Below, piece by piece: positions 174 to 62,372 of a DNA stretch of 64,000 nucleotides (positions within the stretch are counted from its first letter, which is position 1; each line of letters begins with the position of its first letter). The stretch is from positions 3,906,001 through 3,970,000 of the forward strand of contig NZ_CP159290.1 in NCBI RefSeq assembly GCF_040448685.1, written 5' to 3'. Source of the stretch: Cellulosimicrobium sp. ES-005 (GTDB lineage: Bacteria > Actinomycetota > Actinomycetes > Actinomycetales > Cellulomonadaceae). The notes beneath the pieces are model-generated. The model was given only the letters and a program-made list of their open reading frames with translations, was not told the origin of the DNA and did not search any database. A program made the translations under genes and the position numbers.

Positions 174-450
174 CGCTCTCGCCACCCTTCTGGCGTCCGT
201 GCGGGGCGCACTCCCGAGCCTGCACGGGGTGCGCGCCGCGGTCAACGTGGCGCGCGCGTGTCGGGCCGGGTGATTGCGCACGACGGCGTCCGGCGGCCCC
301 GCAGGTCACGGCCCGACCCCTCTTTCACGCCCCTGGCGAACAACGGCATACGGAGGGGGTGCGGCTCGTTCGAACCGCATAGAGTCAATGCGGTCAGGCT
401 TGTACCCGTCGTCCGGCGGGCAGGTGTACGCCGCTCACGAGGAGCAGCAC
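174..450. other. Divergent intergenic region upstream of clpC
   Basis: This 277-bp gap separates the clipped leftward gene from clpC and should hold both promoters. The only clear structure is the 7-bp inverted repeat at 374-394. A TTCGAA hexamer lies at 369-374, just before and overlapping by one base the left arm. No convincing small gene or RNA was seen. Confidence 0.5.
374..394. promoter_or_regulatory. Inverted repeat upstream of clpC, possible operator
   Basis: ACCGCAT and ATGCGGT form perfect 7-bp arms around a 7-nt spacer, 57 bp before the clpC start. The spacer edge includes TAGAGT (380-385), which fits an actinobacterial -10 hexamer, so the dyad could cover a promoter. It does not match the ClgR consensus as I remember it. 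Regulator unknown. Confidence 0.35.
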
Positions 451-3079: not shown

Positions 3080-3535
3080 CGTCGTCTCGCCGAGAGAGAG
3101 CGGAGGCCGCGGGAGAGAGAACCAGCGGTCGCGACGTAGAGCTCCGCGAGCACTACCTCGAGACCGCTGGTTCTACCTCGCGGTGAGGGATGCGACGACG
3201 TTGCACGGCGTTACGTTCGTCCTCGTCGTGGGACGGGGTGCGGGTGCCCTTCCTGTGGCGTGCGCGCGCTGGCACAGTCCCCCGCATGCAGACGACACCG
3301 GGGGGCCATGTCGCCGTCCCCGCCGCCGATGCCGGGCGCGTGCCCGGCGTCGCGTGTCGCCGCGCGCTGAGCGCGCGCCCGCGCCGTCGGGCTGCGTGTC
3401 GTCCGACCCCGTGCCGCTGAGCACGTCGACGCACTGACCGACGGCCGCCCGGGCCGCCGTCGGGCCCGTTCACCACCTCGCCTCCCGCACGCGGCGTCCG
3501 CATGCCCCCGTGCGCTCTCCCCGAGAGGACTCGTC
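3080..3535. other. Intergenic region between clpC and the sulfonate operon
   Basis: 456 bp without a convincing gene. It contains the palindromic repeat at 3118-3174 and the leader/promoter region of the sulfonate operon. A 20-codon frame at 3308-3370 (MSPSPPPMPGACPASRVAAR) contains one cysteine, but nothing else marks it as a cysteine-attenuator leader peptide. Confidence 0.45.
3118..3174. repeat. Palindromic intergenic repeat, GGTAG/CTACC family
   Basis: Outer 13-bp arms AGAACCAGCGGTC (3118-3130) and GACCGCTGGTTCT (3162-3174) are perfect. The inner part contains GTAGAGCTC and CTACCTCG, the words that recur in the repeats at 22048-22120, 50083-50160 and 60177-60241. It lies downstream of the clpC terminator. 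Confidence 0.7.
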
Positions 3536-5541: not shown

Positions 5542-6320
5542 CCGTGGGGGAGGACCGCCCGACGGCGGTCGGCGCGGCCGTGCGGGTCCGCTCGCTCGTT
5601 CGGTCGTACGGGGAGCAGCGCATCCTCGACGACCTCGACCTCACCGTGGACGACGGCGAGTTCGTCGCGATCCTGGGTCGCTCGGGCTCGGGCAAGAGCA
5701 CGCTCCTGCGCGCGCTCGCCGCGCTCGACCACGGGGTAGACGGGTCGGGCGAGGTCGTCGTCCCGGACCAGGTGTCCGTCGTCTTCCAGGACTCGCGGCT
5801 GCTGCCGTGGGCGCGCGTGCTGGACAACGTGGTGCTCGGTCTCGACGCCGGGGCGCGCGGGCGGAGCGCCGCGCGGGACGCCGGCCGCGCGAGCCTCGCG
5901 GAGGTCGGCCTGGCCGGGCGCGAGCGCGCGTGGCCGAACGAGCTCTCGGGCGGCGAGCAGCAGCGCGTGTCGCTCGCCCGCTCGCTCGTGCGCTCGCCGC
6001 GCCTCCTGCTCGCCGACGAGCCGTTCGGCGCGCTCGACGCCCTGACCCGCATCCGGATGCACGCTCTGCTGCGGGACCTGTGCGCGCGGCACCGCCCCGC
6101 CGTCCTGCTCGTGACGCACGACGTGGACGAGGCGATCGTCCTCGCGGACCGCGTCGTCGTGCTCGACGAGGGACGCATCGCGGCCGAGCGCCGCATCGAC
6201 CAGAGCTACCGCCCCGGCGAGGCGCGCGACCCCGCCGACCCCCGCTTCTCCCGGCTCCGTACCGAGCTGCTCGACGCGCTCGGCGTGGTCCGGGACGACA
6301 GGAAGGACACCGCCGCATGA
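5517..6320 (+). CDS. ssuB: Sulfonate-type ABC transporter ATP-binding protein
   Basis: 267 residues. It hydrolyses ATP to drive the permease encoded just upstream. Walker A GRSGSGKST is at about 54-62, the Q-loop VVFQDSRLLPW follows, the ABC signature LSGGEQQ is at about 143-149, Walker B LLLADEPFGALDALT follows with D167, and the H-loop is LLVTHDVDEA. The combination of PFGALDALTR and the DSRLLPW Q-loop is usual in SsuB/TauB ATPases. With the GTG start at 5517 the gene overlaps the permease by 25 bp. Its ATGA end overlaps the next start, so it is translationally coupled to the monooxygenases. Confidence 0.9.
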   Translation: MAAHAGGLTVGEDRPTAVGAAVRVRSLVRSYGEQRILDDLDLTVDDGEFVAILGRSGSGKSTLLRALAALDHGVDGSGEVVVPDQVSVVFQDSRLLPWARVLDNVVLGLDAGARGRSAARDAGRASLAEVGLAGRERAWPNELSGGEQQRVSLARSLVRSPRLLLADEPFGALDALTRIRMHALLRDLCARHRPAVLLVTHDVDEAIVLADRVVVLDEGRIAAERRIDQSYRPGEARDPADPRFSRLRTELLDALGVVRDDRKDTAA

Positions 6321-7756
6321 CCCGCTACGACTCCGCAGGCCACCGCCCGGGGCGCCTGCACCTCAACGCGTTCCTCATGAGCACGGGCCACCACGAGGCG
6401 TCGTGGCGGCTGCCGGAGAGCGACCCGTCGTGGACGTCGACGAACATCGCGCACCTGCAGCGCCTCGCGCAGATCGCGGAGGCGGGCAGGCTCGACTCGA
6501 TCTTCTTCGCGGACGGCCCGGGGCTGCGGTCCGACGTCGGGCGCCGCCCGGCGGGGTCGCTCGACCCGCTCATCGTGCTCACGGCCATCGCGACCGTGAC
6601 CGAGCGCATCGGCCTCATCGCGACGGCGTCGACGACGTACAACTCGCCCTACAACCTCGCGCGGCGGTTCGCGTCGATCGACCACGTCTCCGGCGGTCGG
6701 GCCGGGTGGAACGTCGTGACGACGGCGGGGCCGGACATCGCGCGCAACTTCGGCCTCGACGACCAGCCTGCCCACGCGGTCCGGTACGAGCGCGCGGCGG
6801 AGTTCCTCGACGTCGCGTTCCAGCTCTGGGACTCGTGGGAGGACGACGCCGTGCTGGCCGACAAGGCCGCGGGCGTGTGGGCGGACGCGTCGAAGATTCA
6901 TGCCCCGGCGCACGCGGGGACGCACTTCTCCGTGCACGGCGCCCTCACCACGCCGCGCTCGCCGCAGGCGCGGCCGCTCATCGTGCAGGCCGGGTCGTCG
7001 GAGGACGGCAAGGACCTCGCCGCGCGCTACGCCGAGGCGGTGTTCACCGCGCACCAGACGCTCGACGACGCCCGCGACTTCTACGCCGACCTCAAGGCCC
7101 GGGCGGTCGCCGTCGGCCGCGACCCGGGGACGGTGAAGATCCTGCCCGGCATCGTCCCCGTCATCGGGTCGACCGAGGCGGACGCGCTCGCGCAGGAGCG
7201 CGAGCTCGACGAGCTCATCGTCCCGGAGTACGCGCGCGCCCAGCTCGCGAAGACGCTGCGGCTCGCGCCCGAGGACCTGCCGCTCGACCGCGAGCTGCCG
7301 GACGGTCTGCCCACCGAGGACGAGATCGAGGGGGCCAAGAGCCGGTACACGCTGATCGTCGAGCTCGCGCGGCGCGAGCGGCTCACGGTGCGCCAGCTCA
7401 TCGGGCGGCTCGGCGGCGGGCGCGGGCACCGCACGTTCGCGGGCACGCCCGAGCAGGTCGCCGACGCGATCCAGGACTGGTACGACGCCGAGGCCGCCGA
7501 CGGGTTCAACATCATGCCCGCGGTGCTGCCGTCGGGGCTCGAGCAGTTCGTCGACCACGTGCTACCCGTGCTGCGCGAGCGCGGCCTGTTCCGCGAGGAG
7601 TACGAGGGACGGACGCTGCGCGAGCACTACGGGCTCGAGCGGCCGGCGAACCGGTACGCACGAGCGGGTGAGGTCGACCCCGCCACCGCGGGCACCGCCC
7701 CCGGTGGCCCCGTGCCCGACGGCGGCGCGCGCGTCCTCGAGGAGGCCCTCGCGTGA
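6317..7756 (+). CDS. FMN-dependent monooxygenase of the NtaA/SnaA/DszA family
   Basis: 479 residues, a bacterial luciferase-like TIM barrel that uses reduced flavin and O2. The start MTRYDSAGHRPGRLHLNAFL and the later SIDHVSGGRAGWNVVTTAGPDIARNF are characteristic of the long NtaA/SnaA/DszA/SoxA branch rather than the shorter SsuD branch. Family members open C-S or C-N bonds of sulfonates, sulfones or nitrilotriacetate. It starts at ATG 6317 (ATGA overlap with the ATPase) and its TGA overlaps the GTG of the next gene. No flavin reductase gene is present here, so reduced FMN must come from elsewhere. The role in sulfur acquisition is inferred from the operon. Confidence 0.88.
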   Translation: MTRYDSAGHRPGRLHLNAFLMSTGHHEASWRLPESDPSWTSTNIAHLQRLAQIAEAGRLDSIFFADGPGLRSDVGRRPAGSLDPLIVLTAIATVTERIGLIATASTTYNSPYNLARRFASIDHVSGGRAGWNVVTTAGPDIARNFGLDDQPAHAVRYERAAEFLDVAFQLWDSWEDDAVLADKAAGVWADASKIHAPAHAGTHFSVHGALTTPRSPQARPLIVQAGSSEDGKDLAARYAEAVFTAHQTLDDARDFYADLKARAVAVGRDPGTVKILPGIVPVIGSTEADALAQERELDELIVPEYARAQLAKTLRLAPEDLPLDRELPDGLPTEDEIEGAKSRYTLIVELARRERLTVRQLIGRLGGGRGHRTFAGTPEQVADAIQDWYDAEAADGFNIMPAVLPSGLEQFVDHVLPVLRERGLFREEYEGRTLREHYGLERPANRYARAGEVDPATAGTAPGGPVPDGGARVLEEALA

Positions 7757-8829
7757 GCGCCGAGCACCTCTGGTACGTCCCGAACCAGGTCCGTCCAGGC
7801 CACCGCGGCGACGACGCGGTCGAGGGCCACAACAGCCTCGACACCCTGACGAACCACGCGCACGCGCTGGAACGCCACGGGTTCGCGGGCGCGCTGCTCG
7901 GGACGAGCTGGGGGCGTCCCGACACGTTCACCGTCGCGACGGCGCTCGCGGCCCGCACCACGACGTTCGAGCCGCTCGTCGCGATCCGGCCCGGGTTCTG
8001 GCGGCCCGCGCACTTCGCGTCCGCCGCCGCGACCCTCGACCACCTCAGCGGCGGCCGGCTGCGCGTCAACATCGTGTCCGGCACCGACGGGCAGGAGGCG
8101 TACGGCGACGGCGAGGCCGACCCCGCGCACCGGTATGCCCGGACGCGCGAGTTCCTGCAGATCGTGCGCCGCCTGTGGACGCAGGAGGAGGTCACGTACG
8201 CGGGCGAGCACTTCTCGGTGACGCGGTCACGGCTGGGTCCGCGCCCCGTGGCACGCGACGGCCGCGCGCACCCGCGGATCTACTTCGGCGGCGCGTCGGA
8301 GGCCGCGGAGCGGGTCGCCGCGACCGAGGCGGACGTGCAGCTCTTCTGGGGCGAGCCGCTCGACGGGATCGCGGAGCGCATCGACCGGCTGAAGCGCCTG
8401 AGCGCCGAGCTGGGGCGCGAGCACGCGCCGCTCGAGTTCGGCCTGCGGATCACGACGTTCGTCCGCGACACCACCGAGGAGGCGTGGGCCGACGCCGAGG
8501 CGAAGGTGGCGGAGCTGGCCGCGCGGTCGCAGGAGGGCGAGGCGTGGTCCGCGCGCGACCGGGGGCGGAGCACCGCCGTCGGGCAGCAGCGCCTGCTCGA
8601 CCTCGCGGCGCGCGGCGAGGTGCTCGACGACAACCTGTGGACGACGCCCGGCCGGTTCGGCGGCGGGGGAGCGGGCACGACGTGGCTCGTCGGCTCGGCG
8701 GAGGACGTCGCGAAGTCGCTGCGGCGCTACCAGGACCTCGGCGTCACGCACTTCGTCCTGTCGGACACCCCGTACCTGCGCGAGATCGAGCGCCAGGGCA
8801 CCCAGCTCCTCCCGCTCCTGCGCGACTGA
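7753..8829 (+). CDS. ssuD: Alkanesulfonate monooxygenase-like flavin enzyme (SsuD type)
   Basis: 358 residues, slightly shorter than typical SsuD. It is a luciferase-family TIM barrel: FEPLVAIRPGFWRPAHFA, then TLDHLSGGRLRVNIVSG and HRYARTREFLQIVRRLW are standard SsuD-like segments, and PRIYFGGASEAAERVA forms the phosphate-binding end of the flavin site. It would split alkanesulfonates to aldehyde and sulfite using FMNH2 and O2. GTG 7753 overlaps the previous stop by 4 bp, making this the last gene of the sulfonate operon. A palindromic repeat starts 14 bp after the stop. The symbol is by family resemblance; substrate range is not shown. Confidence 0.88.
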   Translation: MSAEHLWYVPNQVRPGHRGDDAVEGHNSLDTLTNHAHALERHGFAGALLGTSWGRPDTFTVATALAARTTTFEPLVAIRPGFWRPAHFASAAATLDHLSGGRLRVNIVSGTDGQEAYGDGEADPAHRYARTREFLQIVRRLWTQEEVTYAGEHFSVTRSRLGPRPVARDGRAHPRIYFGGASEAAERVAATEADVQLFWGEPLDGIAERIDRLKRLSAELGREHAPLEFGLRITTFVRDTTEEAWADAEAKVAELAARSQEGEAWSARDRGRSTAVGQQRLLDLAARGEVLDDNLWTTPGRFGGGGAGTTWLVGSAEDVAKSLRRYQDLGVTHFVLSDTPYLREIERQGTQLLPLLRD

Positions 8830-8842
8830 CCGAGCACCGCCC

Positions 8843-8906
8843 AGATCGACCCGCGCGTCGTGAGGTCGACCCCCTGAGGGTCGATCTCGGACGCGCGGGT
8901 CGATCT
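8843..8906. repeat. Palindromic intergenic repeat, GATCGACCC family
   Basis: Outer arms AGATCGACCCGCGCGTC (8843-8859) and GACGCGCGGGTCGATCT (8890-8906) are a perfect 17-bp inverted repeat. The loop holds GGTCGACC and GGGTCGATC, partial copies of the same word. Related units are at 17271-17326 and 19304-19375. It may act as the terminator of the sulfonate operon. Confidence 0.75.
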
Positions 8907-8961
8907 CGTGACGGCGACTCCTCCCGCGCGGGCCAGACCCGGCCCGGAGTACCGTCCGGAC

Positions 8962-9972
8962 GTGGACCGGGACCAGCTCGACGACCTCACCGCCCGCCTG
9001 CGCGCCGCCGGGTGCGTCTTCGCGGAGGAGGAGGCCGCGCTCCTCGCCGCGCGGGCCGACGACGACGCGCACCTCGACGCGCTCGTCGCGCGCCGGGTCG
9101 CGGGCGAGCCGCTCGAGCACGTGCTCGGGTACGTCGACTTCCACGGGCTCCGCGTCGCCGTCGACCCCGGGGTCTTCGTGCCGCGCCAGCGCACCGCGCT
9201 GCTCGTCGACGAGGCCGTCGCGCTCGGGCGGCGGGCCAGGCACCTGGACTGGCTGCCCGACGGCGGGACAGGCGGCGGGACAGGCAGCGTGACGGTCGGC
9301 GACGCCGACGGCGGAACAGGAAGCGTGACGGTTGGTGACGCCGACGCCGACGGCGGCGCGGTCGGCGCGGGTGGCGGGGCGGTCGGCAACCCCGACGGCG
9401 ACCGGGACGGCGGCCCGGACAGCGGCCTGGACCGTCGGATGGTCGGCCCGGCAGTGGTCGTGGTCGACCTGTGCTGCGGCGCCGGGGCGCTGGGGCTCGC
9501 GACCGCGGTGGGCCTCGGCGGCGCGGAGACCGTCGCGCTGCACGCGAGCGACGTCGACCCGGCCGCCGTCGCGTGCGCGGCGCGCAACGTCGCCGCGGTC
9601 GGCGGCAGCGCGTACGAGGGCGACCTGTTCGACCCGTTGCCGCCCGGTCTGCGCGGCCGGGTCGACCTGCTCCTCGCCAACGTGCCGTACGTGCCCACGG
9701 CCGAGATCCCGCTGCTGCCCCACGAGGCGCGCGACCACGAGGCCCACGTCGCGCTCGACGGCGGCGGCGACGGGCTGGACGTGCTGCGCCGCGTCGCCGC
9801 CGAGGCGCCCGCGTGGCTCGCTCCGGGCGGCCACCTGCTCACGGAGTCCGGCGAGCGCCAGGCGACGGGCGCCGTCGACGTCCTCGAACGGGCCGGACTG
9901 CGGGCGCGCGTCGTCCGCGACGAGGAGATCGGCGCGACGATCGTCGTCGGGACGCTCCCCGCCGAGGCGTGA
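8962..9972 (+). CDS. PrmC/HemK-like SAM-dependent methyltransferase with a low-complexity insert
   Basis: 336 residues from GTG 8962. The frame is open to GTG 8908 inside the repeat, but the family usually begins close to VDRDQLDDLTARLRAAGCVF. The N-terminal helical domain resembles PrmC (LEHVLGYVDFHGLRVAVDPGVFVPRQRT). The Rossmann SAM site is VVVVDLCCGAGALGL, and the catalytic loop is LLLANVPYVP, where PrmC has NPPY; NVPY or NAPY is seen in the paralogous putative protein N5-glutamine methyltransferases. Between them lies about 65 residues of Gly/Asp/Ala-rich sequence (nt 9253-9450) with a near-exact 11-residue repeat (GTGSVTVGDAD). The insert is probably a surface loop. Substrate unknown; it is not next to prfA. 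The stop lies inside the hairpin at 9969. Confidence 0.8.
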   Translation: MDRDQLDDLTARLRAAGCVFAEEEAALLAARADDDAHLDALVARRVAGEPLEHVLGYVDFHGLRVAVDPGVFVPRQRTALLVDEAVALGRRARHLDWLPDGGTGGGTGSVTVGDADGGTGSVTVGDADADGGAVGAGGGAVGNPDGDRDGGPDSGLDRRMVGPAVVVVDLCCGAGALGLATAVGLGGAETVALHASDVDPAAVACAARNVAAVGGSAYEGDLFDPLPPGLRGRVDLLLANVPYVPTAEIPLLPHEARDHEAHVALDGGGDGLDVLRRVAAEAPAWLAPGGHLLTESGERQATGAVDVLERAGLRARVVRDEEIGATIVVGTLPAEA

Positions 9973-10014
9973 GAAGTGGCCCCCGGGGCGTGCCGTTCAG
10001 GGGCCACTTCTCAC
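9969..10014. terminator. Perfect hairpin overlapping a stop codon, AGAAGTGGCCCC type
   Basis: Arms GTGAGAAGTGGCCCC (9969-9983) and GGGGCCACTTCTCAC (10000-10014) are a perfect 15-bp inverted repeat with a 16-nt loop. The left arm contains the TGA of the methyltransferase gene. It is shaped like the other gene-end repeats here but uses a different word. Confidence 0.7.
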
Positions 10015-10131
10015 GTCTCGTCACGCTCCGCGGGTGGACTCGCAGGTCTCGGTGCACGGATCCGGCCGCACGCGACAGGCTCTGGACGAAGGCCCGGGCG
10101 AACGTGCCGGCCTGCGGAGGGGGTGCCGACG

Positions 10132-11448: not shown

Positions 11449-12099
11449 GTGACCGCACTCGACCCTGCCGCCCTGCTCGCCCGCGACGCCCTCGCCCGCC
11501 TCGACCGGTGGGAGCCGGTCGACGACGAGCAGGCGGCGCTCGCGGCCGAGTACCGCGCGTTCCTCCGCGGCGACGGTGGCTCCGTCGCGCGTGCCGACGC
11601 CGTCCGGCGCGACGGTGGCCCGCAGCACCTCACGGCGAGCTGCTTCGTGCTCAGCCCGGACCTGGCCCGCGTGCTGCTCTGCTTCCATCGCAAGGGCCAG
11701 TTCTGGGTCCAGGTGGGCGGGCACACCGAGCCGGGCGACACGACGCTCGCGGGCGCCGCCTACCGCGAGGCGCGCGAGGAGAGCGGCCTCGACGACCTCG
11801 TCCCGTTCGACCCGGACCCGTCCGCCGGCACCGCCCCCGGCGCCCGCGCCGACGCCGCGCCCGCCGCCCCGGTCGACGTGCACCGCCACGACCTCGCCGC
11901 GGCGTTCGGGACGTGCCGCACGCACTGGGACGTCGGGTTCGTCGCGTTCGCCGACCCGGACACGCGCACCGTCGTGAGCGACGAGAGCGAGGACGTCGCC
12001 TGGTTCCCGGTCGACACGCTGCCGTCCGGCACGCCGGACGACTTCCCCGTCCGCCTGGCGACGGTTCTCGCGGAGGTGCGCCACCGCCGTCGGGCATGA
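11449..12099 (+). CDS. Nudix hydrolase
   Basis: 216 residues. The Nudix motif reads GHTEPGDTTLAGAAYREAR and continues EESGL. Compared with the canonical G-x5-E-x7-REUXEEXGU it has Asp for the first Glu and one extra residue before REAREE, but the metal-binding REAREE core is intact. An alanine-rich loop (about residues 123-141) interrupts the domain after the motif. The enzyme should hydrolyse a nucleoside diphosphate derivative; the substrate is unknown. GTG 11449 is about 60 bp from the divergent kinase-like gene, so the two share a promoter region. Confidence 0.85.
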   Translation: MTALDPAALLARDALARLDRWEPVDDEQAALAAEYRAFLRGDGGSVARADAVRRDGGPQHLTASCFVLSPDLARVLLCFHRKGQFWVQVGGHTEPGDTTLAGAAYREAREESGLDDLVPFDPDPSAGTAPGARADAAPAAPVDVHRHDLAAAFGTCRTHWDVGFVAFADPDTRTVVSDESEDVAWFPVDTLPSGTPDDFPVRLATVLAEVRHRRRA

Positions 12100-12105
12100 G
12101 GGCCC

Positions 12106-12122
12106 GCTCTACCTCGGCGGGG
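12106..12122. repeat. Single arm of the GGTAG/CTACC repeat at the lutC stop
   Basis: GCTCTACCTCGGCGGGG occurs here and, identical over 17 bp, at 60225-60241. In both places the CTA is the reverse-strand TAG stop (lutC here, the GH42 gene there), and both proteins end in PPR. Confidence 0.7.
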
Positions 12123-12771
12123 CGAGGACCACGTGGAGGGTGCGTGGTCCGTGGACGCCCTCGACGCGGGAGAGCTCGATGTCGCTCGTCGCGCTGGGGC
12201 CGCTGATCCACGTCTGCGGTCGTTCCGGGTGCGCGGCGAGCAGCCGCACGGCCTCGGGCACGGTCTGCACCACCTGGTCCGTGCGCACGACGCAGACGTG
12301 CAGGTCGGGCACGAGCGTGATCGCCCGGCGGCCCTGGTCGGGCTCGCCGTCGAGCACGATCGTGCCGGTGTCGGCGATCGCGACGCACGCGGCCGTGACG
12401 ACGGCTTCCACCCGGTCGAGCTCGTCGGGCGTGCGCGGGTCGTCGCGTGCGTCGGGCACGACGGCGGTCCCGGCACCCAGCGCGCCCAGCCACGCGTCGT
12501 CGAGCCCCGGCGGCACGACGACGGACGCCGCGTCCGCGAGCACGTCGCCCACGATCGTGGCGACCTCGGCCGGGCCGGCGGCCCGGTGGACGTGCGCCCG
12601 GTACTCGACGAGCCGGTCGACGAGGACGTCCACGGCTCCCGGCGACCCCGGCGCGAGGTCGCCGCGCTCGCGGTACGCCCGCGGGACCCGGCCCGACGCC
12701 GCCGACCCGCCCGCCGTCGACCCCCCGAGCGCGGCGCGCACGCGGGCGAGGACGTCGTCACGCGCGCTCAC
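12109..12771 (-). CDS. lutC: LutC, LUD-domain lactate utilisation protein
   Basis: 220 residues, the size expected for LutC/YkgG. It forms, with LutA and LutB, the cytoplasmic iron-sulfur L-lactate dehydrogenase complex. The core IADTGTIVLDGEPDQGRRAITLVPDLHVCVV and the end WISGPSATSDIELSRVEGVHGP are LUD-domain signatures. An alanine/glycine-rich linker (about residues 15-28) follows the N-terminal helix. Its GTG start overlaps the lutB stop (TGA/GTG). The last codons and the TAG stop lie in a 17-bp sequence shared with the end of the GH42 gene. Last gene of lutABC. Confidence 0.92.
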   Translation of the reverse strand: MSARDDVLARVRAALGGSTAGGSAASGRVPRAYRERGDLAPGSPGAVDVLVDRLVEYRAHVHRAAGPAEVATIVGDVLADAASVVVPPGLDDAWLGALGAGTAVVPDARDDPRTPDELDRVEAVVTAACVAIADTGTIVLDGEPDQGRRAITLVPDLHVCVVRTDQVVQTVPEAVRLLAAHPERPQTWISGPSATSDIELSRVEGVHGPRTLHVVLAPPR

Positions 12772-14507: not shown

Positions 14508-15298
14508 CGGGCACCCCCGCGCGTCGACGGACCGGCCCCGGCGAGGGCGGGCGTGTCCTTGGTGGACGCGAGGATCTCCGCGAAGTGGAGCGTGCGGACG
14601 CCCGCGCGGATGCGCGACAGGCCGCCGCCGATGTGCAGGAGGCACGACGCGTCGCCCGCGGTGAGGACCTCGGCGCCCGTCGCCTTCACGTGCGTCATCT
14701 TGTCGGCGAGCATCGCCGTCGAGGTCTCGGCGTTCTTCAGCGCGAAGGTGCCGCCGAACCCGCAGCACGCCTCCGCCGCGGGCAGCTCGACGAGGTCGAT
14801 GCCCGCGACCGCGCGCAGGAGGCGCAGCGGCTTGTCGCCGACGTGGAGCATGCGCAGCGAGTGGCACGTCGGGTGGTAGGTGACGCGGTGCGGGAAGTAG
14901 GCGCCGACGTCGGTCACGGCGAGCACGTCGACGAGCAGCTCGGACAGCTCGTACGTCTTCGCGGCGACCGCGTCGGCGGTGCGCGCGAGGTCGTCGAGGC
15001 CGGCGCGCCGGCAGACCATGCCCTGCTGGTGCCGCACGGACCCGGTGCACGAGCCGGACGGGACGACGATCGCGTCCCACTCGCCGTCGAGCACGGGGGA
15101 GAACGCCTCGACATGGTTCCGCACCACGGGGACCGCCTCGTCGAGGTACCCGGTGTTGACGTGCATCTGGCCGCAGCAGGCCTGGCGCTCGGGGAAGAAC
15201 ACCTCGTGCCCGAGGCGCTCGAGGAGGAGGGCGGTGGCGCGCGGTGCCTGCGGGAACATCACGTCGCCGAGGCAGGTCGCGGTGAGGGCTATGCGCAT
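14504..15298 (-). CDS. lutA: LutA, CCG-domain subunit of lactate dehydrogenase
   Basis: 264 residues. Two cysteine-rich CCG domains are visible: RQACCGQMHVN in the first half and AEACCGFGGTFALKN in the second, preceded by TCLGDVMFP at the start. These bind the substrate-side iron-sulfur centres in the LutABC complex. ATG 15298 was chosen because LutA begins MRIALTATCLGD and a GGAG lies just upstream; the frame is open further but low in similarity. First gene of lutABC. A GntR-type dyad (15389-15401) lies about 95 bp upstream and suggests lactate-responsive control. Confidence 0.93.
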   Translation of the reverse strand: MRIALTATCLGDVMFPQAPRATALLLERLGHEVFFPERQACCGQMHVNTGYLDEAVPVVRNHVEAFSPVLDGEWDAIVVPSGSCTGSVRHQQGMVCRRAGLDDLARTADAVAAKTYELSELLVDVLAVTDVGAYFPHRVTYHPTCHSLRMLHVGDKPLRLLRAVAGIDLVELPAAEACCGFGGTFALKNAETSTAMLADKMTHVKATGAEVLTAGDASCLLHIGGGLSRIRAGVRTLHFAEILASTKDTPALAGAGPSTRGGAR

Positions 15299-15478: not shown

Positions 15479-17191
<1,713 letters not shown>

Positions 17192-18659: not shown

Positions 18660-19016
18660 TCAGGAGCCGTCGAGGTCCAGCGGCCACGCAGGGTGCAGCT
18701 CGATCGCCCCGCCGTACGCCATGGGGTGCTCGGACGCGATGGCGATCGCGGCGTCCAGGTCGGGCGCCTCGAGGACGTCGAACCCGGCGATCGTCTCCTT
18801 GGTCTCGGAGAACGGCCCGTCGGTGACGAGGACCTTGCCGCCGCGCACCCGGACGCCGACGGCGTCCTCCGCGGGTCGCAGCCGGTCGCCCAGCACCGCG
18901 GCGCCGCTGCCGTAGTGGCGCCCGACCCACTCCTCGATCGGGGGTGCCGCCGCGGCCTCCTCGGGGCGCAGGTCGGGGTCGTGCGGCGTGCTGAGCACGA
19001 GCATGAGGTAACGCAT
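18660..19016 (-). CDS. YCII-related (DGPF) domain protein
   Basis: 118 residues. It starts MRYLMLVLSTPHDPD and carries the diagnostic VTDGPFSETKETIAGFDVLEA motif. YCII proteins are small ferredoxin-like-fold dimers of uncertain biochemistry that accompany ECF41/ECF42 sigma factors. ATG 19016 is preferred over the adjoining GTG 19019 because GGAGG lies at good spacing. The start overlaps the TGA of the small upstream gene (TGATG). The operon position suggests that it is a target or partner of the sigma factor. Confidence 0.9.
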   Translation of the reverse strand: MRYLMLVLSTPHDPDLRPEEAAAAPPIEEWVGRHYGSGAAVLGDRLRPAEDAVGVRVRGGKVLVTDGPFSETKETIAGFDVLEAPDLDAAIAIASEHPMAYGGAIELHPAWPLDLDGS

Positions 19017-21037: not shown

Positions 21038-22057
21038 GTGGTCACCGTCCGTGACGTCGCCCGCGAGAGCGGGGTGTCGATCTCCACGGTCTCCCGCGCC
21101 CTCGCCGAGCCCGAGCGCGTCGCCCCGGAGACGCGCGACCGCGTCGTCGCCGTCGCCCACCGCCTCGGGTACCGGCCCAACCGCGCCGCGAGCGGGCTGC
21201 GTGCCGGTCGCACCGGGGCCCTCGGTCTCGTCGTGCCCGACCTGGAGAACCCGTACTTCGCGTCCGTGACCAAGGGCGTGCAGGCGCGGGCGCGCCAGAC
21301 GGGCCACGCCGTGTTCGTCGTCGACGCGGGGGAGGACCCCGCGCTCGAGACCGAGCTCGTGACCGGGCTGCGGTCCCAGACGGACGGGCTCGTGCTGTGC
21401 TCTCCGCGTGCCGCCGAGGCCGACCTGGACGCAGCGCGGGGCGCCCCCGTCGTCCTCGTCAACCTCCGGCACGACGGCGTGCCCTCCGTCTCCTCGGACG
21501 ACGCGCACGGCGTCGTCCTCGCCGTCGAGCACCTGCGGGCGCTCGGGCACCGCCGCGTCGCGTACGTCGGCGGGCCCGACCGGTCGTGGTCCGACGCGCG
21601 CCGCCGCGCCGGGCTCGACGTCGTCCGCGAGCGCTACCCCGACGTCGAGACCGTCACCGTGGGGTCGTTCCGCCCCCGTGTCGAGGGCGGTCGTGCGGCC
21701 GCCGACCTCGTCGTCGCGTCGGGGGCGACGGCGGTCCTCGCCTACAACGACCTCGTCGCCCTCGGCCTCGTCGCGCGACTCCGGGAGCGCGGCGTCGACG
21801 TGCCGCGCGACCTCAGCGTCGTCGGGTTCGACGACACGTTCGTCGCGACCCTCGCGTCGCCCCCGCTCACCACGGTCCGCACCGACCTCGCGCGCCTCGG
21901 TGCCCGCGCCGTCGACCGCCTGGTCGCGGCGCTCGGCACGCGTCGCGGGGCCGTCGCCGACGCCGACGGGTCGCCGGAGCCCGCGACGGCGCCCGACGAC
22001 GTCCTCCCCGTCGAGCTCATGGTGCGCGACTCCACGACCCTCGCCCCCGCGAGATAG
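21038..22057 (+). CDS. LacI-family transcriptional regulator, probable hexuronate repressor
   Basis: 339 residues from GTG 21038 (GAGGAGG upstream). The helix-turn-helix VTVRDVARESGVSISTVSRAL and hinge segment NRAASGLRAGRT occupy residues 1-60, and the periplasmic-binding-protein-like effector domain follows (GALGLVVPDLENPYFASVTKG; AVEHLRALGHRRVAYVGGP; VVGFDDTFVATLASPPLTTV). Divergent from uxaC, it probably represses uxaC, itself and the uxuBA operon in response to a hexuronate or its product, because the same operator pair occurs at both loci. The TAG stop lies inside a palindromic repeat. Confidence 0.9.
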   Translation: MVTVRDVARESGVSISTVSRALAEPERVAPETRDRVVAVAHRLGYRPNRAASGLRAGRTGALGLVVPDLENPYFASVTKGVQARARQTGHAVFVVDAGEDPALETELVTGLRSQTDGLVLCSPRAAEADLDAARGAPVVLVNLRHDGVPSVSSDDAHGVVLAVEHLRALGHRRVAYVGGPDRSWSDARRRAGLDVVRERYPDVETVTVGSFRPRVEGGRAAADLVVASGATAVLAYNDLVALGLVARLRERGVDVPRDLSVVGFDDTFVATLASPPLTTVRTDLARLGARAVDRLVAALGTRRGAVADADGSPEPATAPDDVLPVELMVRDSTTLAPAR

Positions 22058-22120
22058 AGCCTCCGGTCTCGGCGTAGAGCTCGCCGGGCTCTACCTCGCG
22101 ACGGGAGCCGCTATCTCGCG
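22048..22120. repeat. Palindromic intergenic repeat, GGTAG/CTACC family
   Basis: CGCGAGATAG (22048-22057) and CTATCTCGCG (22111-22120) are perfect outer arms. Inside are GTAGAGCTCG and GGGCTCTACCTCG. The left arm carries the TAG stop of the LacI gene. Confidence 0.75.
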
Positions 22121-49042: not shown

Positions 49043-50092
49043 ATGCCTCTCGCTCCGCGCTACGTCGCCGCCGACGACCGTTACGACACCATGACCTACC
49101 GCCGGACGGGGCGCAGCGGCCTCGACCTCCCCGCGATCTCGCTCGGACTGTGGCACAACTTCGGAGACGTGAACCCGTTCGAGACGCAGCGCGCCGTGCT
49201 GCGCCGCGCGTTCGACCTCGGGATCACGCACTTCGACCTCGCCAACAACTACGGCCCGCCCTACGGCTCCGCGGAGGAGAACTTCGGCCGCCACCTCGCG
49301 CAGGACCTCGGCGCGTACCGCGACGAGCTCGTCATCTCCTCCAAGGCCGGGTACGACATGTGGCCCGGGCCGTACGGCGACGGCGGCTCGCGCAAGTACC
49401 TCCTGTCCTCGCTCGACCAGTCGCTGACGCGCATGGGCCTCGACTACGTGGACGTCTTCTACCACCACCGCCCGGACCCGAGCACCCCGCTCGAGGAGTC
49501 CATGCGGGCGCTGCACGACGCCGTCCAGCAGGGCAAGGCGCTCTACGTCGGCGTGTCGAACTACTCGCCGTCCCGCACGCGCGAGGCCGCCGCGATCCTC
49601 GCCGACCTCGGCACCCCGCTGCTCATCCACCAGCCCAGCTACTCGATGCTCAACCGCCACGTCGAGGACCTGGCGCACGAGGACCCGTACGACGGCGTCC
49701 AGAGCGAGTCGCTGCTCGACGTCGTGGGCGACCTCGGCGTCGGCACCATCGTGTTCTCGCCGCTCCAGCAGGGCCTGCTCACCGACCGCTACCTCTCCGG
49801 CTCCGCGCCCGAGGGATCGCGCGCCGCCCGCCCCGACTCGCCGTTCCTGTCCGAGCAGAACCTCGACGAGGCTTACCTCGAGAAGGCTCGCGCGCTGAAC
49901 GAGATCGCCGCCGGCCGCGACCAGACCCTCGCCCAGCTCGCCCTCGCCTGGGTGCTCCGCGACGACCGCGTCACGTCCGCGCTCATCGGCGCGAGCAGCG
50001 TGCGCCAGCTCGAGAACAACGTCGCCGCGCTCGCGGCACCCCCGCTCACCCCCGACGAGACGGACGCCATCGAGTCCGCCCTCGCGAGGTAG
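49043..50092 (+). CDS. Aldo/keto reductase, YghZ-like
   Basis: 349 residues. The (beta/alpha)8 NADPH reductase fold is clear: GLDLPAISLGLWHNFGDV, ITHFDLANNYGPPYGSAEENF (catalytic Asp/Tyr), ISSKAGYDMWPGPYGDGGSRKYL (catalytic Lys), DVFYHHRPD (His), and ALIGASSVRQLENNV (NADPH site). The WPGPYGDGGSRKYL segment is typical of the L-glyceraldehyde-3-phosphate reductase (YghZ/GpR) group. Starts at ATG 49043, 31 bp after the LacI gene, so it may be read through from it. Its TAG stop is inside the nested palindrome. Confidence 0.92.
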   Translation: MPLAPRYVAADDRYDTMTYRRTGRSGLDLPAISLGLWHNFGDVNPFETQRAVLRRAFDLGITHFDLANNYGPPYGSAEENFGRHLAQDLGAYRDELVISSKAGYDMWPGPYGDGGSRKYLLSSLDQSLTRMGLDYVDVFYHHRPDPSTPLEESMRALHDAVQQGKALYVGVSNYSPSRTREAAAILADLGTPLLIHQPSYSMLNRHVEDLAHEDPYDGVQSESLLDVVGDLGVGTIVFSPLQQGLLTDRYLSGSAPEGSRAARPDSPFLSEQNLDEAYLEKARALNEIAAGRDQTLAQLALAWVLRDDRVTSALIGASSVRQLENNVAALAAPPLTPDETDAIESALAR

Positions 50093-50160
50093 AACCGAAC
50101 CGCCGGTCGCGAGGTAGAGCTCGCGGGGCTCTACCTCGGGTCCGGAGGTTCTACCTCGCG
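50083..50160. repeat. Nested double palindrome between convergent genes
   Basis: Outer arms CGCGAGGTAGAACC (50083-50096) and GGTTCTACCTCGCG (50147-50160); inner arms CGAGGTAGAGC (50110-50120) and GCTCTACCTCG (50128-50138). All are perfect. The left outer GGTAG gives the stop of the aldo/keto reductase and an inner CTACC gives the stop of the converging sigma gene. Confidence 0.85.
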
Positions 50161-51513
50161 ACCATGGGCGGGGTGCGGGTCGGCAGACGACGACGCCGCG
50201 GCGGCGCGCTCCAGGAGGAGCTGGCGCTCGTGGCGGGTCGGGGCGAGGGCAGCGGCGCGTTCGAGGACGTCCGCGGCCTCGGCGTGCCGTCCCAGCCGGG
50301 TGAGCAGGTCGCCGCGCACGGCGCCGTAGAGGTGGTGGCGGGCGAGGCGCGGGTCGTCCGCGACGGCGTCGAGCACGACGAGCGCGGCGTCGGGACCGTC
50401 CGCGTAGCCGACGGCGACGGCGCGGTTGAGCTCGACGACGGGGGAGGGCGCGACGGACGCGAGCGCGTCGTAGAGGGCGACGATCGCCTCCCAGTCGGTG
50501 TCCGCCCAGGCCGTGGCCCGTGCGTGGCACGCGGCGATCGCGGCCTGGAGGGAGTAGGGACCGAGCGGCTTCCCGGCGCGCGTGCCCAGCGCGAGCGCGC
50601 GGTCGAGCGCGGCGAGGCCGTGGCGGACGAGGAGGCGGTCCCAGCGTGCACGGTCCTGGTCCTGGAGCAGCACGGGCTCGCCGTCGGGCCCGGTGCGCGC
50701 GGCGAAGCGTGACGCCTGGAGCTCCATGAGCGCGACGAGCCCGTGCACCTCCGGCTCGCCCGGGAGCAGCCCGGCGAGCACCCGCCCGAGCCGCATCGCG
50801 TCGTCGGCGAGCTCGCGCCGTACCCACGCGTCTCCCGACGTGGCGGCGTACCCCTCGGTGAAGACGAGGTACACGACCTCGAGCACGGCGGGCACGCGGG
50901 CGGCGAGCTCGTCGGCCTGCGGGACGTCGAACGGGACGTTCGCCTCGGCGAGCGTCCGCTTCGCGCGCGAGACGCGCTGCCCGACCGTCGCGGAGGGGAC
51001 GAGGAACGCGCGCGCGATCTCGTCCGTCGTCAGTCCCCCCACGAGGCGCAGGGTGAGCGCGACGCGGGAGTCGCGCGGGAGCACGGGGTGACAGGCGACG
51101 AGCACGAGCGCGAGCAGGTCGTCGCCCACGGGGTCCTCGACGATCGCGTCGGGGGCCGGGACCGACCCCACGAGGACCGCGCCGCCGTCGCCCGGGTGCG
51201 CGACCGCCGTCGTCCCTCCGCCGGACCGCGCACCGGGCGCGGCGAGGTCCGCCGCGAGCCGCGCGTACTTCTCGTCGCGCGTGCGCTCGCGGCGGACCAG
51301 GTCGACGGCGCGGCGGCGCGCCACGGTCGTCAGCCACGCGCCGGGGTTGTCCGGGACGCCCTGCTCGGGCCACTGCTCGAGCGCGGCGACGAACGCCTCC
51401 TGGGCGACCTCCTCGGCGAGGCCGACGTCGCGCAGGGTCCGCGCGAGGCCCGCGACGAGCCGCGGCGACTCGATGCGCCACACGGCCTCGACGGTGCGGG
51501 AGACGTCGGTCAT
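50131..51513 (-). CDS. ECF42-type RNA polymerase sigma factor
   Basis: 460 residues, the same layout as the factor at 17297: region 2 (GLAEEVAQEAFVAALEQWPEQGVPDNPGAWLTT), region 4 (TTDEIARAFLVPSATVGQRVSRAKR) and a long C-terminal TPR-like domain (about 200-440; VYLVFTEGYAATSGDAW, YSLQAAIAACHA, SPVVELNRAVAVGYADGPDAAL). An Ala/Gly-rich insert lies between the sigma regions (about 90-125). A YCII gene lies 37 bp upstream on the same strand. The last residues, GREVEPPDPR, are encoded within the palindromic repeat, as in the other copy. Confidence 0.93.
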   Translation of the reverse strand: MTDVSRTVEAVWRIESPRLVAGLARTLRDVGLAEEVAQEAFVAALEQWPEQGVPDNPGAWLTTVARRRAVDLVRRERTRDEKYARLAADLAAPGARSGGGTTAVAHPGDGGAVLVGSVPAPDAIVEDPVGDDLLALVLVACHPVLPRDSRVALTLRLVGGLTTDEIARAFLVPSATVGQRVSRAKRTLAEANVPFDVPQADELAARVPAVLEVVYLVFTEGYAATSGDAWVRRELADDAMRLGRVLAGLLPGEPEVHGLVALMELQASRFAARTGPDGEPVLLQDQDRARWDRLLVRHGLAALDRALALGTRAGKPLGPYSLQAAIAACHARATAWADTDWEAIVALYDALASVAPSPVVELNRAVAVGYADGPDAALVVLDAVADDPRLARHHLYGAVRGDLLTRLGRHAEAADVLERAAALAPTRHERQLLLERAAAASSSADPHPAHGREVEPPDPR

Positions 51514-60176: not shown

Positions 60177-60241
60177 CGAGGTAGAGGCGTGGTCATGACC
60201 ACGCCTCTACCTCGCGCTACCGGGGCTCTACCTCGGCGGGG
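60177..60241. repeat. Perfect 38-bp palindrome plus an arm, GGTAG/CTACC family
   Basis: The arm CGAGGTAGAGGCGTGGTCA (60177-60195) is followed at once by its complement (60196-60214), with no loop. A further GCTCTACCTCGGCGGGG (60225-60241) carries the stop of the GH42 gene. Confidence 0.85.
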
Positions 60242-62372
60242 TCGGCTCGGCCGAGCGGCGGACGACGGCGACGCCGCGCGGCTCGAGCAGGATCGCTCCG
60301 GTCTCCGGGGAGCCAGTGCCCGACGGCGCGAGGCGGCGGCCTGCGAGGACGTCGCCCGCGACGTCGGGCACCTCGACCGGGCGCGCCGTGCGGTTGACGA
60401 GGAACCAGAAGTCGTCGGAGCCGTCCGTCCGCACCGCGAGCTCGACGTCGCCGCGGACGGCGGCGGGCAGCTCGCTGCGCACGCCCGCGTCGTCGAGCAG
60501 GCGCGCGAGCACGGGGACGAGGCCGAGGCGCCCGAACCGCGTGGAGACGTACGCGGCGGAGCCCGCGCCGTCCCCGGACCGGACCGTCCGCCGCGTCACC
60601 GCGGCGCGGCCCGCCTGCTCACCGGTCTTGTACCAGCCCAGCACCTCGACGTCGGGGTCGACGACGTCCACCGGCTCGGTCCACAGGGTGCCCTCGAGCT
60701 GCTCGCCCGCGAGCTCGACCGTCGCGCTCTCGCCGTCCAGCAGCGGGGCGAACTCCTCGACGCGGACGCCGAGCAGGTCGCGCAGCGCGCCGGGGTAGCC
60801 GCCGAGCCACGCGTGGTCGTCCTGGTCGACGACGCCCGAGAAGTACGTGGTGACGAGGTGGCCCCCGCCCTCGACGAACGCCGTGAGGCGGTCCCGGAGG
60901 TCGACGGGGACCACGTGCAGCACGGGCGCCACGACGACGTCGTACGTCGCGAGGTCCGTCGCCGTGGGCACCACGTCCGCCCGCACGCCGAGCGCGAGGA
61001 ACGCCGAGTACCAGTCGAGCGCCTCCTGCCGGTAGCGCAGCCGGTCCGTGGGGTGGGAGTCGAGCTCGCTCGCCCACCACGAGTCCCAGTCGAAGACGAT
61101 CGCGGCCCGCGCGGGCTTCTGCTCGCTGCCCGCGACGGGGGCGAGGTCGCGCAGGGTCGCACCGAGCGCGACGACGTCGCGGAACAGGCGTGAGCGCTCG
61201 CCGGCGTGCGGGAGCATGCCCGAGTGGTACTTCTCGGCGCCCGCCGCGGACTGGCGCCACTGGAAGTAGCAGACCGCGTCGGCGCCGTGCGCGACGTGGG
61301 TGAGCGAGTCCCGCGCGAGCTCGCCCGGCTTCTTCGCGACGTTGACGGGCTGCCAGTTCACTGCGCTCGTCGAGTGCTCCATGAGGAACCACGGGCGGTG
61401 CCGGGCGATGCCGCCCGTGAGGTTCGCGGAGAACGAGAGCTCGTCGAGGGCCTGCGGCCCGGGGAGCACGTAGTGGTCGTTGGAGACGAAGTCCAGCTCG
61501 TCCGCCCAGGCGGCGTAGTCCATGCCCTTCGTCTCGCCCATGACCATGAAGTTCGTCGTCACGGGGACGTCGGGCGTGACGCGGCGCAGGATCGCGGCCT
61601 CCGCGCGCAGGTACTCCCGCAGCGCGTCCGACGAGAACCGCTTGAAGTCGAGCTGCTGCGTCGGGTTCGGGTGCGACGCGGCCAGGCGGGGCGGCAGGAT
61701 CTGCTCCCACGCGCTGTAGCGCTGGGACCAGAACGCCGTGCCCCACGCGTCGTTGAGCGCGTCGAGGGTCGTGTAGCGCTCGCGCAGCCACGTGCGGAAC
61801 GCGGCGGCGGCGTCGTCGGAGAAGTCGTCGACGTTGTGGCAGCCCAGCTCGTTGGAGACGTGCCACGCGACGAGCGCCGGGTGGTCCCCGTACCGCTCGG
61901 CCATGCGCTCCACGAGGCGCAGCGCGTGCTCGCGGAAGACCGGCGACGTCGGGCGCCACTGCTGCCGGGCGCCCGGCCACAGGGTCTCGCCCGTGCGGGT
62001 CTGGGGCAGGATCTCCGGGTGCTTCGTCGTGAGCCACGGCGGCGGCGAGGCCGTCGCCGTCGCGAGGTCGACCGTGATGCCGTTCGCGTGGAGCAGGTCC
62101 ATGACCTCGTCGAGCCACGCGAAGTCCCACGTGTGCTCCGTCGGCTGGATCCGCGCCCACGAGAAGATCGCGAGCGAGACCACCGTGACGCCCGCCTCGC
62201 GCATGAGGCGCACGTCCTCCGCCCAGACCTCGCGCGGCCACTGGTCCGGGTTGTAGTCCGCGCCGTAGGACAGGCCCGACGGCGCGTACGCGTCGGACGC
62301 TCCGACGGCCGCGCCCGGGGGCGTGTGCGGCCCGGGACGGCGCAGCCAGCGGAACGGGGTGGGGGTGGACAT
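60228..62372 (-). CDS. GH42 beta-galactosidase
   Basis: 714 residues, intracellular (no signal peptide). GLSYGADYNPDQWPREVWAED is the GH42 opening. Glu175 in WHVSNELGCH is the acid/base and Glu332 in FLMEHSTSAVNW the nucleophile. The trimerisation domain (VADVVPTATDLATYDVVVAP) and a small C-terminal beta domain follow. It removes terminal galactose from imported galacto-oligosaccharides. A short Pro-rich leader of about 30 residues precedes the domain. It lies downstream of the sugar-binding lipoprotein gene with a strong hairpin between, and its TAG stop lies in a repeat arm. Confidence 0.95.
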   Translation of the reverse strand: MSTPTPFRWLRRPGPHTPPGAAVGASDAYAPSGLSYGADYNPDQWPREVWAEDVRLMREAGVTVVSLAIFSWARIQPTEHTWDFAWLDEVMDLLHANGITVDLATATASPPPWLTTKHPEILPQTRTGETLWPGARQQWRPTSPVFREHALRLVERMAERYGDHPALVAWHVSNELGCHNVDDFSDDAAAAFRTWLRERYTTLDALNDAWGTAFWSQRYSAWEQILPPRLAASHPNPTQQLDFKRFSSDALREYLRAEAAILRRVTPDVPVTTNFMVMGETKGMDYAAWADELDFVSNDHYVLPGPQALDELSFSANLTGGIARHRPWFLMEHSTSAVNWQPVNVAKKPGELARDSLTHVAHGADAVCYFQWRQSAAGAEKYHSGMLPHAGERSRLFRDVVALGATLRDLAPVAGSEQKPARAAIVFDWDSWWASELDSHPTDRLRYRQEALDWYSAFLALGVRADVVPTATDLATYDVVVAPVLHVVPVDLRDRLTAFVEGGGHLVTTYFSGVVDQDDHAWLGGYPGALRDLLGVRVEEFAPLLDGESATVELAGEQLEGTLWTEPVDVVDPDVEVLGWYKTGEQAGRAAVTRRTVRSGDGAGSAAYVSTRFGRLGLVPVLARLLDDAGVRSELPAAVRGDVELAVRTDGSDDFWFLVNRTARPVEVPDVAGDVLAGRRLAPSGTGSPETGAILLEPRGVAVVRRSAEPTPPR

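What the first reader, a model, noticed from the sequence alone, without database searches (positions are those of the whole stretch)
50083..50160. Nested palindromes built from GAGGTAG that supply stop codons to converging genes
The repeat is a double hairpin (14-bp outer and 11-bp inner arms, all perfect), and both converging genes end on its TAG trinucleotides. Relatives occur at 3118-3174, 22048-22120, 60177-60241 and as one arm at 12106-12122. In four of the five places a gene stop codon lies inside the repeat. The elements may be bidirectional terminators or REP-like elements that prefer gene ends.
Basis: seen in the sequence. Interest (0 to 1): 0.72.

Follow-up and report, generated by a model that had tools for sequence, protein, structure and literature searches.

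The report
Gene-end repeats targeted by RNA-guided transposon
Cellulosimicrobium bacteria carry scores of short palindromic DNA repeats, mostly at the ends of genes, where they may help transcripts stop; the same repeat also sits inside a few proteins and is the landing site of a jumping gene of the RNA-guided IS110 family.

Summary
The double hairpin at 50082-50161 is real. It belongs to a repeat family found so far in Cellulosimicrobium and a few relatives. Its S-form unit GAGGTAGARNCNNGGTC has 149 exact copies in this genome, 0 for the reversed control. There are two main forms: a nested hairpin (D, ~79 nt) with compensatory changes, and 21-bp arrays facing inward (S). Of 42 clusters with known neighbours, 23 lie between converging and 2 between diverging genes; 19 stop codons, all TAG, fall inside elements. 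RAYT was not found, and no T-run follows, so the classical terminator definition is not met; a U-less two-way 3'-end hairpin is likeliest but unproven. (2) In 3 of 45 unit groups, arrays lie antisense in genes, read in frame as (DQGSTSA)n; unit number varies between species. Verdict: RAYT-less variant of the REP kind.

The parts
50082..50161 (.). D-form element: nested double hairpin between converging genes (outer arms 50082-50096/50147-50161, inner perfect arms 50110-50120/50128-50138)
   Evidence: orthologous AKR gene ends compared in 16 genomes
49043..50092 (+). aldo/keto reductase gene; its TAG stop 50090-50092 is in the outermost unit
   Evidence: Pfam PF00248; coding score
50131..51513 (-). 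sigma-70 factor with DUF6596; its TAG stop 50131-50133 is in the inner unit, so its last codons lie in the 3' half of the element
   Evidence: Pfam; coding score
3110..3182 (.). D-form element about 90 nt past the stop of a + gene (424-3018), in tandem context
22048..22120 (.). D-form element with GAGATAG outer units; the LacI gene (called as 21038-22057 +) stops on its first TAG
60177..60235 (.). S-form element: 38-nt perfect palindrome (60177-60214) plus one further inverted unit; the GH42 gene (60228-62372 -) stops on the last unit
12108..12115 (-). lone unit core GAGGTAGA; the - gene 12109-12771 (coding score only) stops on its TAG. ACCGCCGTCGGGCATGA at 12083-12099 resembles the block beside arrays in composite elements
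   Evidence: 86.8% over 38 nt to a relative's composite
8836..8913 (+). related double hairpin with GAGATCGAC/GAGGTCGAC arms and G.U pairs, just past the TGA of the + gene 7753-8829

Best explanation
The feature is one copy of a REP-like dispersed repeat family of Cellulosimicrobium, whose S form is built from a directional 21-bp unit (GAGGTAGARNCNNGGTC plus 4). Shown here: where units of both directions occur they face inward, with few exceptions, so transcripts of either strand can fold into long hairpins; elements cluster at gene 3' ends, mostly between converging genes, often supplying the stop codon; unit number changes quickly; and the unit is the insertion site of an IS110-family transposon whose non-coding leader carries part of the same sequence. 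Inferred: (a) the hairpins act as U-less, two-way 3'-end elements (termination or protection of the 3' end), which would explain why pairing is kept while sequence and form change; (b) the IS110 reads the unit through a bridge-RNA guide; (c) the family spreads by an enzyme not yet identified and not by a RAYT, while arrays grow and shrink by slippage between 21-bp copies.
For: Copies: 149 exact units, 0 reversed control; 25 palindromes, 0 control; present in 14 of 15 other same-genus genomes, 4 of 21 from other genera of the family (three with a single copy), 0 of 22 from other families of the order. Placement: 42 of 43 clusters have both neighbours known: 23 convergent, 17 tandem, 2 divergent, p about 1e-6 against intergenic bases; 46 of 63 facing 3' ends within 30 nt; 19 stops inside, all TAG, against 61 TAG among 394 complete genes in the sample. 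Set not picked by palindromes, the first 100 listed of 149 exact units = 45 groups: 20 convergent, 15 tandem, 4 divergent, 3 inside genes, 3 at an edge. Pairing in nine D elements: 86.9% of cells pair, 8 of 33 pairs change on both sides (reached by 9 of 500 shuffles), covariation score reached by 0 of 500. At 1050600 a relative has an unrelated hairpin of -59.3 kcal/mol in the same interval. IS110: 5 of 5 junctions in the unit; 5 of 5 same-species sites have units and no IS; 13-nt match in the leader, 0 of 2000 simulations.
Against: No T-run: mean 1.29 T in 10 nt, 4 or more T in 5 of 84 flanks. Tandem elements of the family show no sense-strand preference in stability (sense better 5, antisense 9, tie 3), and unit orientation in tandem gaps is not tied to the gene (22 sense, 21 antisense). 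Preference for gene ends could simply mean that insertion there does least harm. Arrays without partner units fold weakly (two-unit stretches at -11.5 to -12.5 kcal/mol). The nine D elements are paralogues, for which shuffle controls are lenient. No transcript data were available. The model searches scored only 150 of 9065 and 150 of 9872 candidates, so those copy numbers are lower bounds.
Confidence: 0.62

Rival explanations
1. Purely selfish repeat: the family spreads by an unknown transposition mechanism and survives at gene 3' ends only because insertions elsewhere are removed; hairpins follow from the inverted structure and do nothing for the host.
For: Unit number differs between two genomes of one species at 4 of 14 shared places; copies occur inside genes where the reading frame tolerates them; no T-run; no sense-strand preference in tandem elements; an IS110 exploits the unit.
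Against: Paired changes on both sides in the D form; an unrelated strong hairpin fills the interval at one orthologous place; the adjoining stop is within 30 nt at 46 of 63 facing 3' ends, closer than tolerance alone seems to require.
Confidence: 0.3
2. Array of binding sites for an unknown DNA-binding protein: the 21-bp period (two helical turns) lines sites up on one face, giving a roadblock to RNA polymerase or a chromosome-organising site.
For: Spacing is 21 bp in 64 of 66 neighbouring same-strand units that match the pattern; looser units also show 20 and 22.
Against: 21 bp is also seven codons, and arrays occur in frame in genes; outer and inner units of D elements lie 20 or 25 bp apart; variable positions co-vary as pairs. 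The fixed core GAGGTAGA is built into the search pattern and is no evidence.
Confidence: 0.06
3. Fail-safe stop codons: each unit brings a TAG every seven codons in the same frame, catching read-through.
For: 19 stops inside elements, all TAG; a 21-bp period keeps frame.
Against: Where the stop lies outside the element, the outer TAG is in frame in 11 of 34 cases, the chance level; 21 of 43 units in tandem gaps point the wrong way.
Confidence: 0.02

Closest known systems
REP/BIME elements of Proteobacteria
   Same: Short palindromic repeats in high copy, mostly downstream of genes (passages of PMC3733652), and targets of IS elements (abstract of PMC1525189).
   Different: No RAYT domain found; GTAG is inside the stem, not an unpaired tag; head-to-tail 21-bp arrays. 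The passages seen of PMC3733652 list the phyla of GTAG- and CGTC-REPs without Actinobacteria, and a word search of its text for 'actino' found 0.
IS621/IS110 bridge-RNA elements that insert in REP (passages of PMC11208160)
   Same: The IS found here has both IS110 Pfam domains and passes the NCBIfam model 'IS110 family RNA-guided transposase', has a 296-nt leader and one target inside a repeat.
   Different: The target is a different repeat family, in an actinobacterium; the guide assignment here is by sequence only.
Rickettsia palindromic elements (RPE)
   Same: A repeat read in frame inside unrelated metabolic genes (passage of review PMC10969869).
   Different: RPEs are about 150 bp; here a 21-bp unit gives a heptapeptide repeat, and most copies are at gene ends.
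U-lacking and bidirectional transcript 3' ends of high-GC bacteria
   Same: Stable stems without a U-tract, and two-way ends, as reported for Streptomyces clavuligerus (passages of PMC8269248).
   Different: The passages describe no dispersed sequence family; ends were measured there, not here.

Membership tests
REP/BIME (RAYT-associated) | High-copy short palindromes, mainly intergenic and downstream of genes | tested here: met
REP/BIME (RAYT-associated) | Unpaired GTAG or CGTC tag at one end of the stem | tested here: not met
   GTAG is paired within the arm in the D and S elements folded
REP/BIME (RAYT-associated) | RAYT (Y1_Tnp) gene in the genome | tested here: not met
   0 of 29 genomes, own and 15 same-genus included; 5 of 14 control genomes ring
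Classical intrinsic terminator | Stable hairpin at gene 3' end | tested here: met
Classical intrinsic terminator | T/U-run after the stem | tested here: not met
   4 or more T in 5 of 84 flanks
Classical intrinsic terminator | Stops transcription | not testable with these tools
   needs RNA 3'-end data or reporters
MITE | Terminal inverted repeats shared with an autonomous transposon | tested here: inconclusive
   composite elements have inward arrays and shared cargo; of ten genes beside arrays tested by Pfam, two were transposases, both copies of the inserted IS110
MITE | Target-site duplication and clean empty sites | tested here: inconclusive
   the element at 1604497 is absent from a same-species genome, but present in the next species, so loss is likelier
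IS110 family (the inserted transposon) | DEDD and Transposase_20 domains | tested here: met
IS110 family (the inserted transposon) | Fixed target sequence | tested here: met
   5 of 5 copies between GAGGTAGAGC and CGTGG
IS110 family (the inserted transposon) | Bridge RNA with target and donor guides | tested here: inconclusive
   13-nt target match and 8-nt donor-junction match in the leader; the two right-hand guides are tentative; expression not tested
Rickettsia palindromic elements | In-frame presence inside unrelated genes | tested here: met
   3 genes
Rickettsia palindromic elements | About 150-bp palindrome with an open frame | tested here: not met
   in-gene copies are head-to-tail 21-bp units in one direction

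The most novel reading that the evidence does not exclude
A single 21-bp sequence works in three ways that together make it a safe genomic parasite: facing pairs make strand-symmetric 3'-end hairpins; in sense its TAG can close a gene; in antisense all three frames are open and, inside genes, it is read as a hydrophilic heptapeptide linker (DQGSTSA)n. An RNA-guided IS110 has programmed its bridge RNA to this repeat and so inherits ready-made harmless landing sites, and the repeat itself is spread by a mechanism that is not RAYT.
Probability: 0.35. Interest if true: 0.75.

Novelty: new variant of a known kind. Interest (0 to 1): 0.62.

Why it matters
In the papers whose passages I saw, REP families are mainly proteobacterial and tied to RAYT enzymes. 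Here a high-GC actinobacterial genus has a comparable family without a detectable RAYT, so another route of spread and upkeep should exist. The family makes several questions testable: whether repeat hairpins supply U-less two-way gene ends in high-GC bacteria, how one repeat can live both at stop codons and in frame inside core enzymes, and how IS110 guides become programmed to abundant harmless targets. Five near-identical IS copies, with unit-bearing IS-free sites in a same-species genome, are a natural experiment on bridge-RNA targeting.

Tried and rejected
RAYT-driven REP: not supported, no Y1_Tnp match in 29 genomes. Fail-safe stop codons: not supported, outer TAG in frame in 11 of 34. 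'Sense arrays trailing each gene', an idea from the long arrays beside the AKR gene in relatives: not upheld, 22 sense and 21 antisense units in tandem gaps. RNA-strand preference by G.U pairs: all 51 tandem hairpins of the sample lean to the sense strand (24 better, 11 worse, 16 ties), but the GAGGTAG family does not (5, 9, 3). Rfam: no match in the window or in 5 loci holding composites. No tRNA in the window. A first unit pattern had one N too many and counted other units; replaced. Literature: eight searches; no listed title concerns this repeat, but the library lacks most subscription journals, so this is no proof of novelty. Of papers I saw: abstract and section list of PMC1525189; passages of PMC11208160, PMC3733652, PMC12306157, PMC8269248 and PMC10969869; listings only for the rest. 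The names BIME and I-shaped terminator as applied here are partly recalled.

Full report
1. The observation. The element at 50082-50161 has 15-bp perfect outer arms and an 11-bp perfect inner pair within a longer 88% pair. It folds strongly from either strand (-61.6 and -54.4 kcal/mol, z -8.0 and -6.3). The flanking genes are an aldo/keto reductase and a sigma-70 factor; both stop on TAGs of the element. The listed relatives are real, but of two forms: 3110 and 22048 share the double form (D), 60177 is a perfect palindrome with one extra unit (S), and 12108 is a single unit. I also found 8836-8913, a double hairpin with other arm letters. Thirteen long inverted repeats of any sequence occur in the window, 0 in each of three Markov sequences.

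2. The family. The window lies at 3906001-3970000 of a closed 4,855,880-bp genome. A scan of named genomes with an S-form pattern returned 77 stretches, 73 titled Cellulosimicrobium, 3 Oerskovia flava and 1 Sphaerisporangium cinnabarinum; records of the window's own genome may be left out there, so its genus is inferred. The palindrome GAGGTAGA-N0-30-TCTACCTC occurs 25 times in the own genome, in 14 of 15 other same-genus genomes, in 4 of 21 genomes of other genera of the family (18 copies in one, 1 each in three), and in 0 of 22 genomes of other families in the order; the reversed control gave 0 in each genome. The S unit GAGGTAGARNCNNGGTC has 149 exact copies against 0 for the control. Among pattern-matching units in the own-genome stretches I hold, 64 of 66 neighbouring same-strand pairs are exactly 21 bp apart, and 12 of 21 facing pairs form a 36-bp palindrome; looser units also show 20 and 22 bp. 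Where both directions occur they point inward, with a few exceptions; one-direction arrays also occur. Covariance models gave 74 and 72 strand-hits, with only 150 of 9065 and 150 of 9872 candidates scored. At 60 bits or more the D model marks 15 places, 9 of which built the model.

3. Placement. Genes were called with my own codon-usage caller, trained on 95,250 codons; it is not an official annotation. In the loci then held, 43 clusters passed my limit; some elements with more changes, such as window 22048, did not, and a few rows are two halves of one composite. Of the 43, 23 lie between converging genes, 17 in tandem gaps, 2 between diverging genes and 1 at a locus edge. Against the share of intergenic bases the convergent excess has p about 1e-6 and the divergent deficit p about 3e-4; 46 of 63 facing 3' ends are within 30 nt, 19 of them overlapping, while 4 of 21 facing 5' ends are within 30 nt. 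All 19 stops inside elements (17 elements) are TAG, while TAG ends 61 of 394 complete genes in the 464-kb sample. As that set came mostly from palindrome and model searches, I repeated the count on the first 100 listed of 149 exact units, in 45 groups: 20 convergent, 15 tandem, 4 divergent, 3 inside genes, 3 at edges; convergent p about 2e-5 on the 39 classed. Long hairpins of any sequence are common at gene ends here: of 194 in 464 kb, 96 are in genes and 98 outside, 31 of these in the 62 convergent gaps and 10 in the 60 divergent gaps; the limit was lax (16 in 200 kb of one-strand random sequence).

4. Structure is kept while sequence changes. In nine D elements 86.9% of cells pair against 36-46% in slid controls; 8 of 33 pairs change on both sides (9 of 500 shuffles reach that), and no shuffle reaches the covariation score. 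The nine are paralogues of one genome, so the changes show constraint within the family, and the shuffle control is lenient for related sequences. At the AKR gene end, read in 16 genomes (forms judged by eye), the gene's own end GAGGTAG or a near form is kept in most, while what follows differs: D form (own, same-species G059, G009, G011), S-like arrays (G002, G003, G007, G012), arrays around 0.1-1 kb of cargo (G001, G004, G005), a short hairpin (G013), or none clear (G006, G008, G010, G014). At 15 own elements compared with two genomes, same-species G059 keeps 14, with a different unit number at 4, and lacks one. In G009, 13 places could be compared: 12 hold a family element, and at 1050600 an unrelated hairpin (-59.3 kcal/mol) fills the interval. 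At 4038865 G009 has a D where the own genome has an S, but paralogous genes make that orthology uncertain.

5. Composite elements. In some places left and right arrays are separated by cargo in which no gene was called, made partly of two modules of about 190 bp with long-loop inverted repeats. A 687-bp probe gave 69 matching pieces in the own genome and 108 in G005, with 35 candidates scored per genome. In 10 of 17 fetched own loci an array lies within 15 nt of the outer end of the R module; in others the IS110 or more distance intervenes. No Rfam family matches. What the modules are is open.

6. An IS110 sits in the unit. Four loci next to R modules share a 355-aa gene; the two copies tested have both IS110 domains, and NCBIfam names it 'IS110 family RNA-guided transposase'. 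Five near-identical copies exist in the own genome and no full copy in 15 others of the genus, same-species G059 included. All 5 lie at the same point and orientation in the unit, GAGGTAGAGC | IS | CGTGG (borders certain only to 1-2 nt). At the 5 places found in G059 by a left-flank match there are units and no IS in the stretch read; at 755321 and 278732 the unit equals the joined own flanks, at 4 of 5 it is plainly the GCCGTGG type, and at 4012154 two neighbouring units make it ambiguous. GCCGT units make up 13 of the 100 listed. A fragment of the IS left end sits in a unit in G004. The IS has a 296-nt leader and 16 nt after the gene. The leader holds CGAGGTAGAGCCG, 13 nt of the target in the sense expected of a left target guide (0 of 2000 Markov leaders reach 13), and GGATCTGT, 8 nt of the joined ends, as a left donor guide would. 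GCTACGG as right target guide and GACTC-GT-CACAG as right donor guide are my reading by eye of the leader, in line with the layout in passages of PMC11208160. The leader also holds GCCGTGGTCG in the sense direction, which that layout does not predict; a captured piece of an array is therefore a rival origin of the matches.

7. Copies inside genes. Three of the 45 unit groups lie inside called genes, all antisense to the gene. Nitrate reductase alpha chain: repeats at residues 467-493, in the stretch 433-538 that does not align to 1q16. Glycine dehydrogenase: repeats at 467-486, just past the end of the GDC-P match at 463 and across the break (475/509) where the solved relative has 4 residues. 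Pyridoxal-dependent decarboxylase: repeats at 218-244, before the main Pfam stretch 251-420. All three read the same frame, (DQGSTSA)n, although all antisense frames of the consensus are open; the sense strand has a stop in one frame. Between the own genome and G009 the unit number changes with the frame kept open: 4 to 3, 3 to 1 and 4 to 1; G059 matches the own number.

8. Reading. Firm: a dispersed repeat family with inward-facing units at gene 3' ends, structurally constrained, changing quickly, with an IS110 inserted in its unit. Inferred: a U-less two-way 3'-end role and bridge-RNA guidance. Against the first stand the missing T-run, the lack of strand preference in tandem elements, and the possibility that gene ends are merely tolerant. 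Unknown: how the repeat itself moves. It works like REP/BIME in several respects, but it is not filed as RAYT-type REP, because the enzyme and the unpaired tag were tested and not met.

Noticed in passing
L150:14183-14374 and 14674-14865 (own genome 4314183-4314865): Two high-copy non-coding modules of about 190 bp with long-loop inverted repeats, between GAGGTAG arrays; 69 matching pieces in the own genome and 108 in one relative. Nature open.
   Followed up: partly
L146:10229-10290, 16889-16953, 5713-5773, 7233-7283; L143:17456-17518, 18900-18962; L145:7420-7488: A second hairpin repeat family around ACGACATGAGGGTCGTTATC outside genes, several near gene ends.
   Followed up: no
L138:19785-19846; L134:19100-19163; L145:4007-4074; L136:12941-13008; L135:5388-5453: Further hairpin types seen twice or with the same nested design (CCGAACCCGGGGTCGTTCC, CGAGNGCTGCG, GAGATCGGCGGT).
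   Followed up: no
window 8836-8913: Nested double hairpin of the same design with GAGATCGAC/GAGGTCGAC arms and G.U pairs, found by the model on one strand only, just past a + strand stop.
   Followed up: partly
window 9963-10020: Hairpin CGAGGCGTGAGAAGTGGCCCC... overlapping a + strand gene end.
   Followed up: no
L088 (QAPD01000013.1): A record titled Sphaerisporangium cinnabarinum ATCC 31213 carries an S element with the same form and gene distances as locus L030 of an unnamed relative; the name may be wrong.
   Followed up: no
G000:C1:277352, 315619, 755309, 4012142, 4592346: Five near-identical IS110 copies in this strain and no full copy in a same-species genome: probably a recent burst.
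   Followed up: yes
L143:16216-16264: Very long G and C homopolymer runs between converging genes.
   Followed up: no
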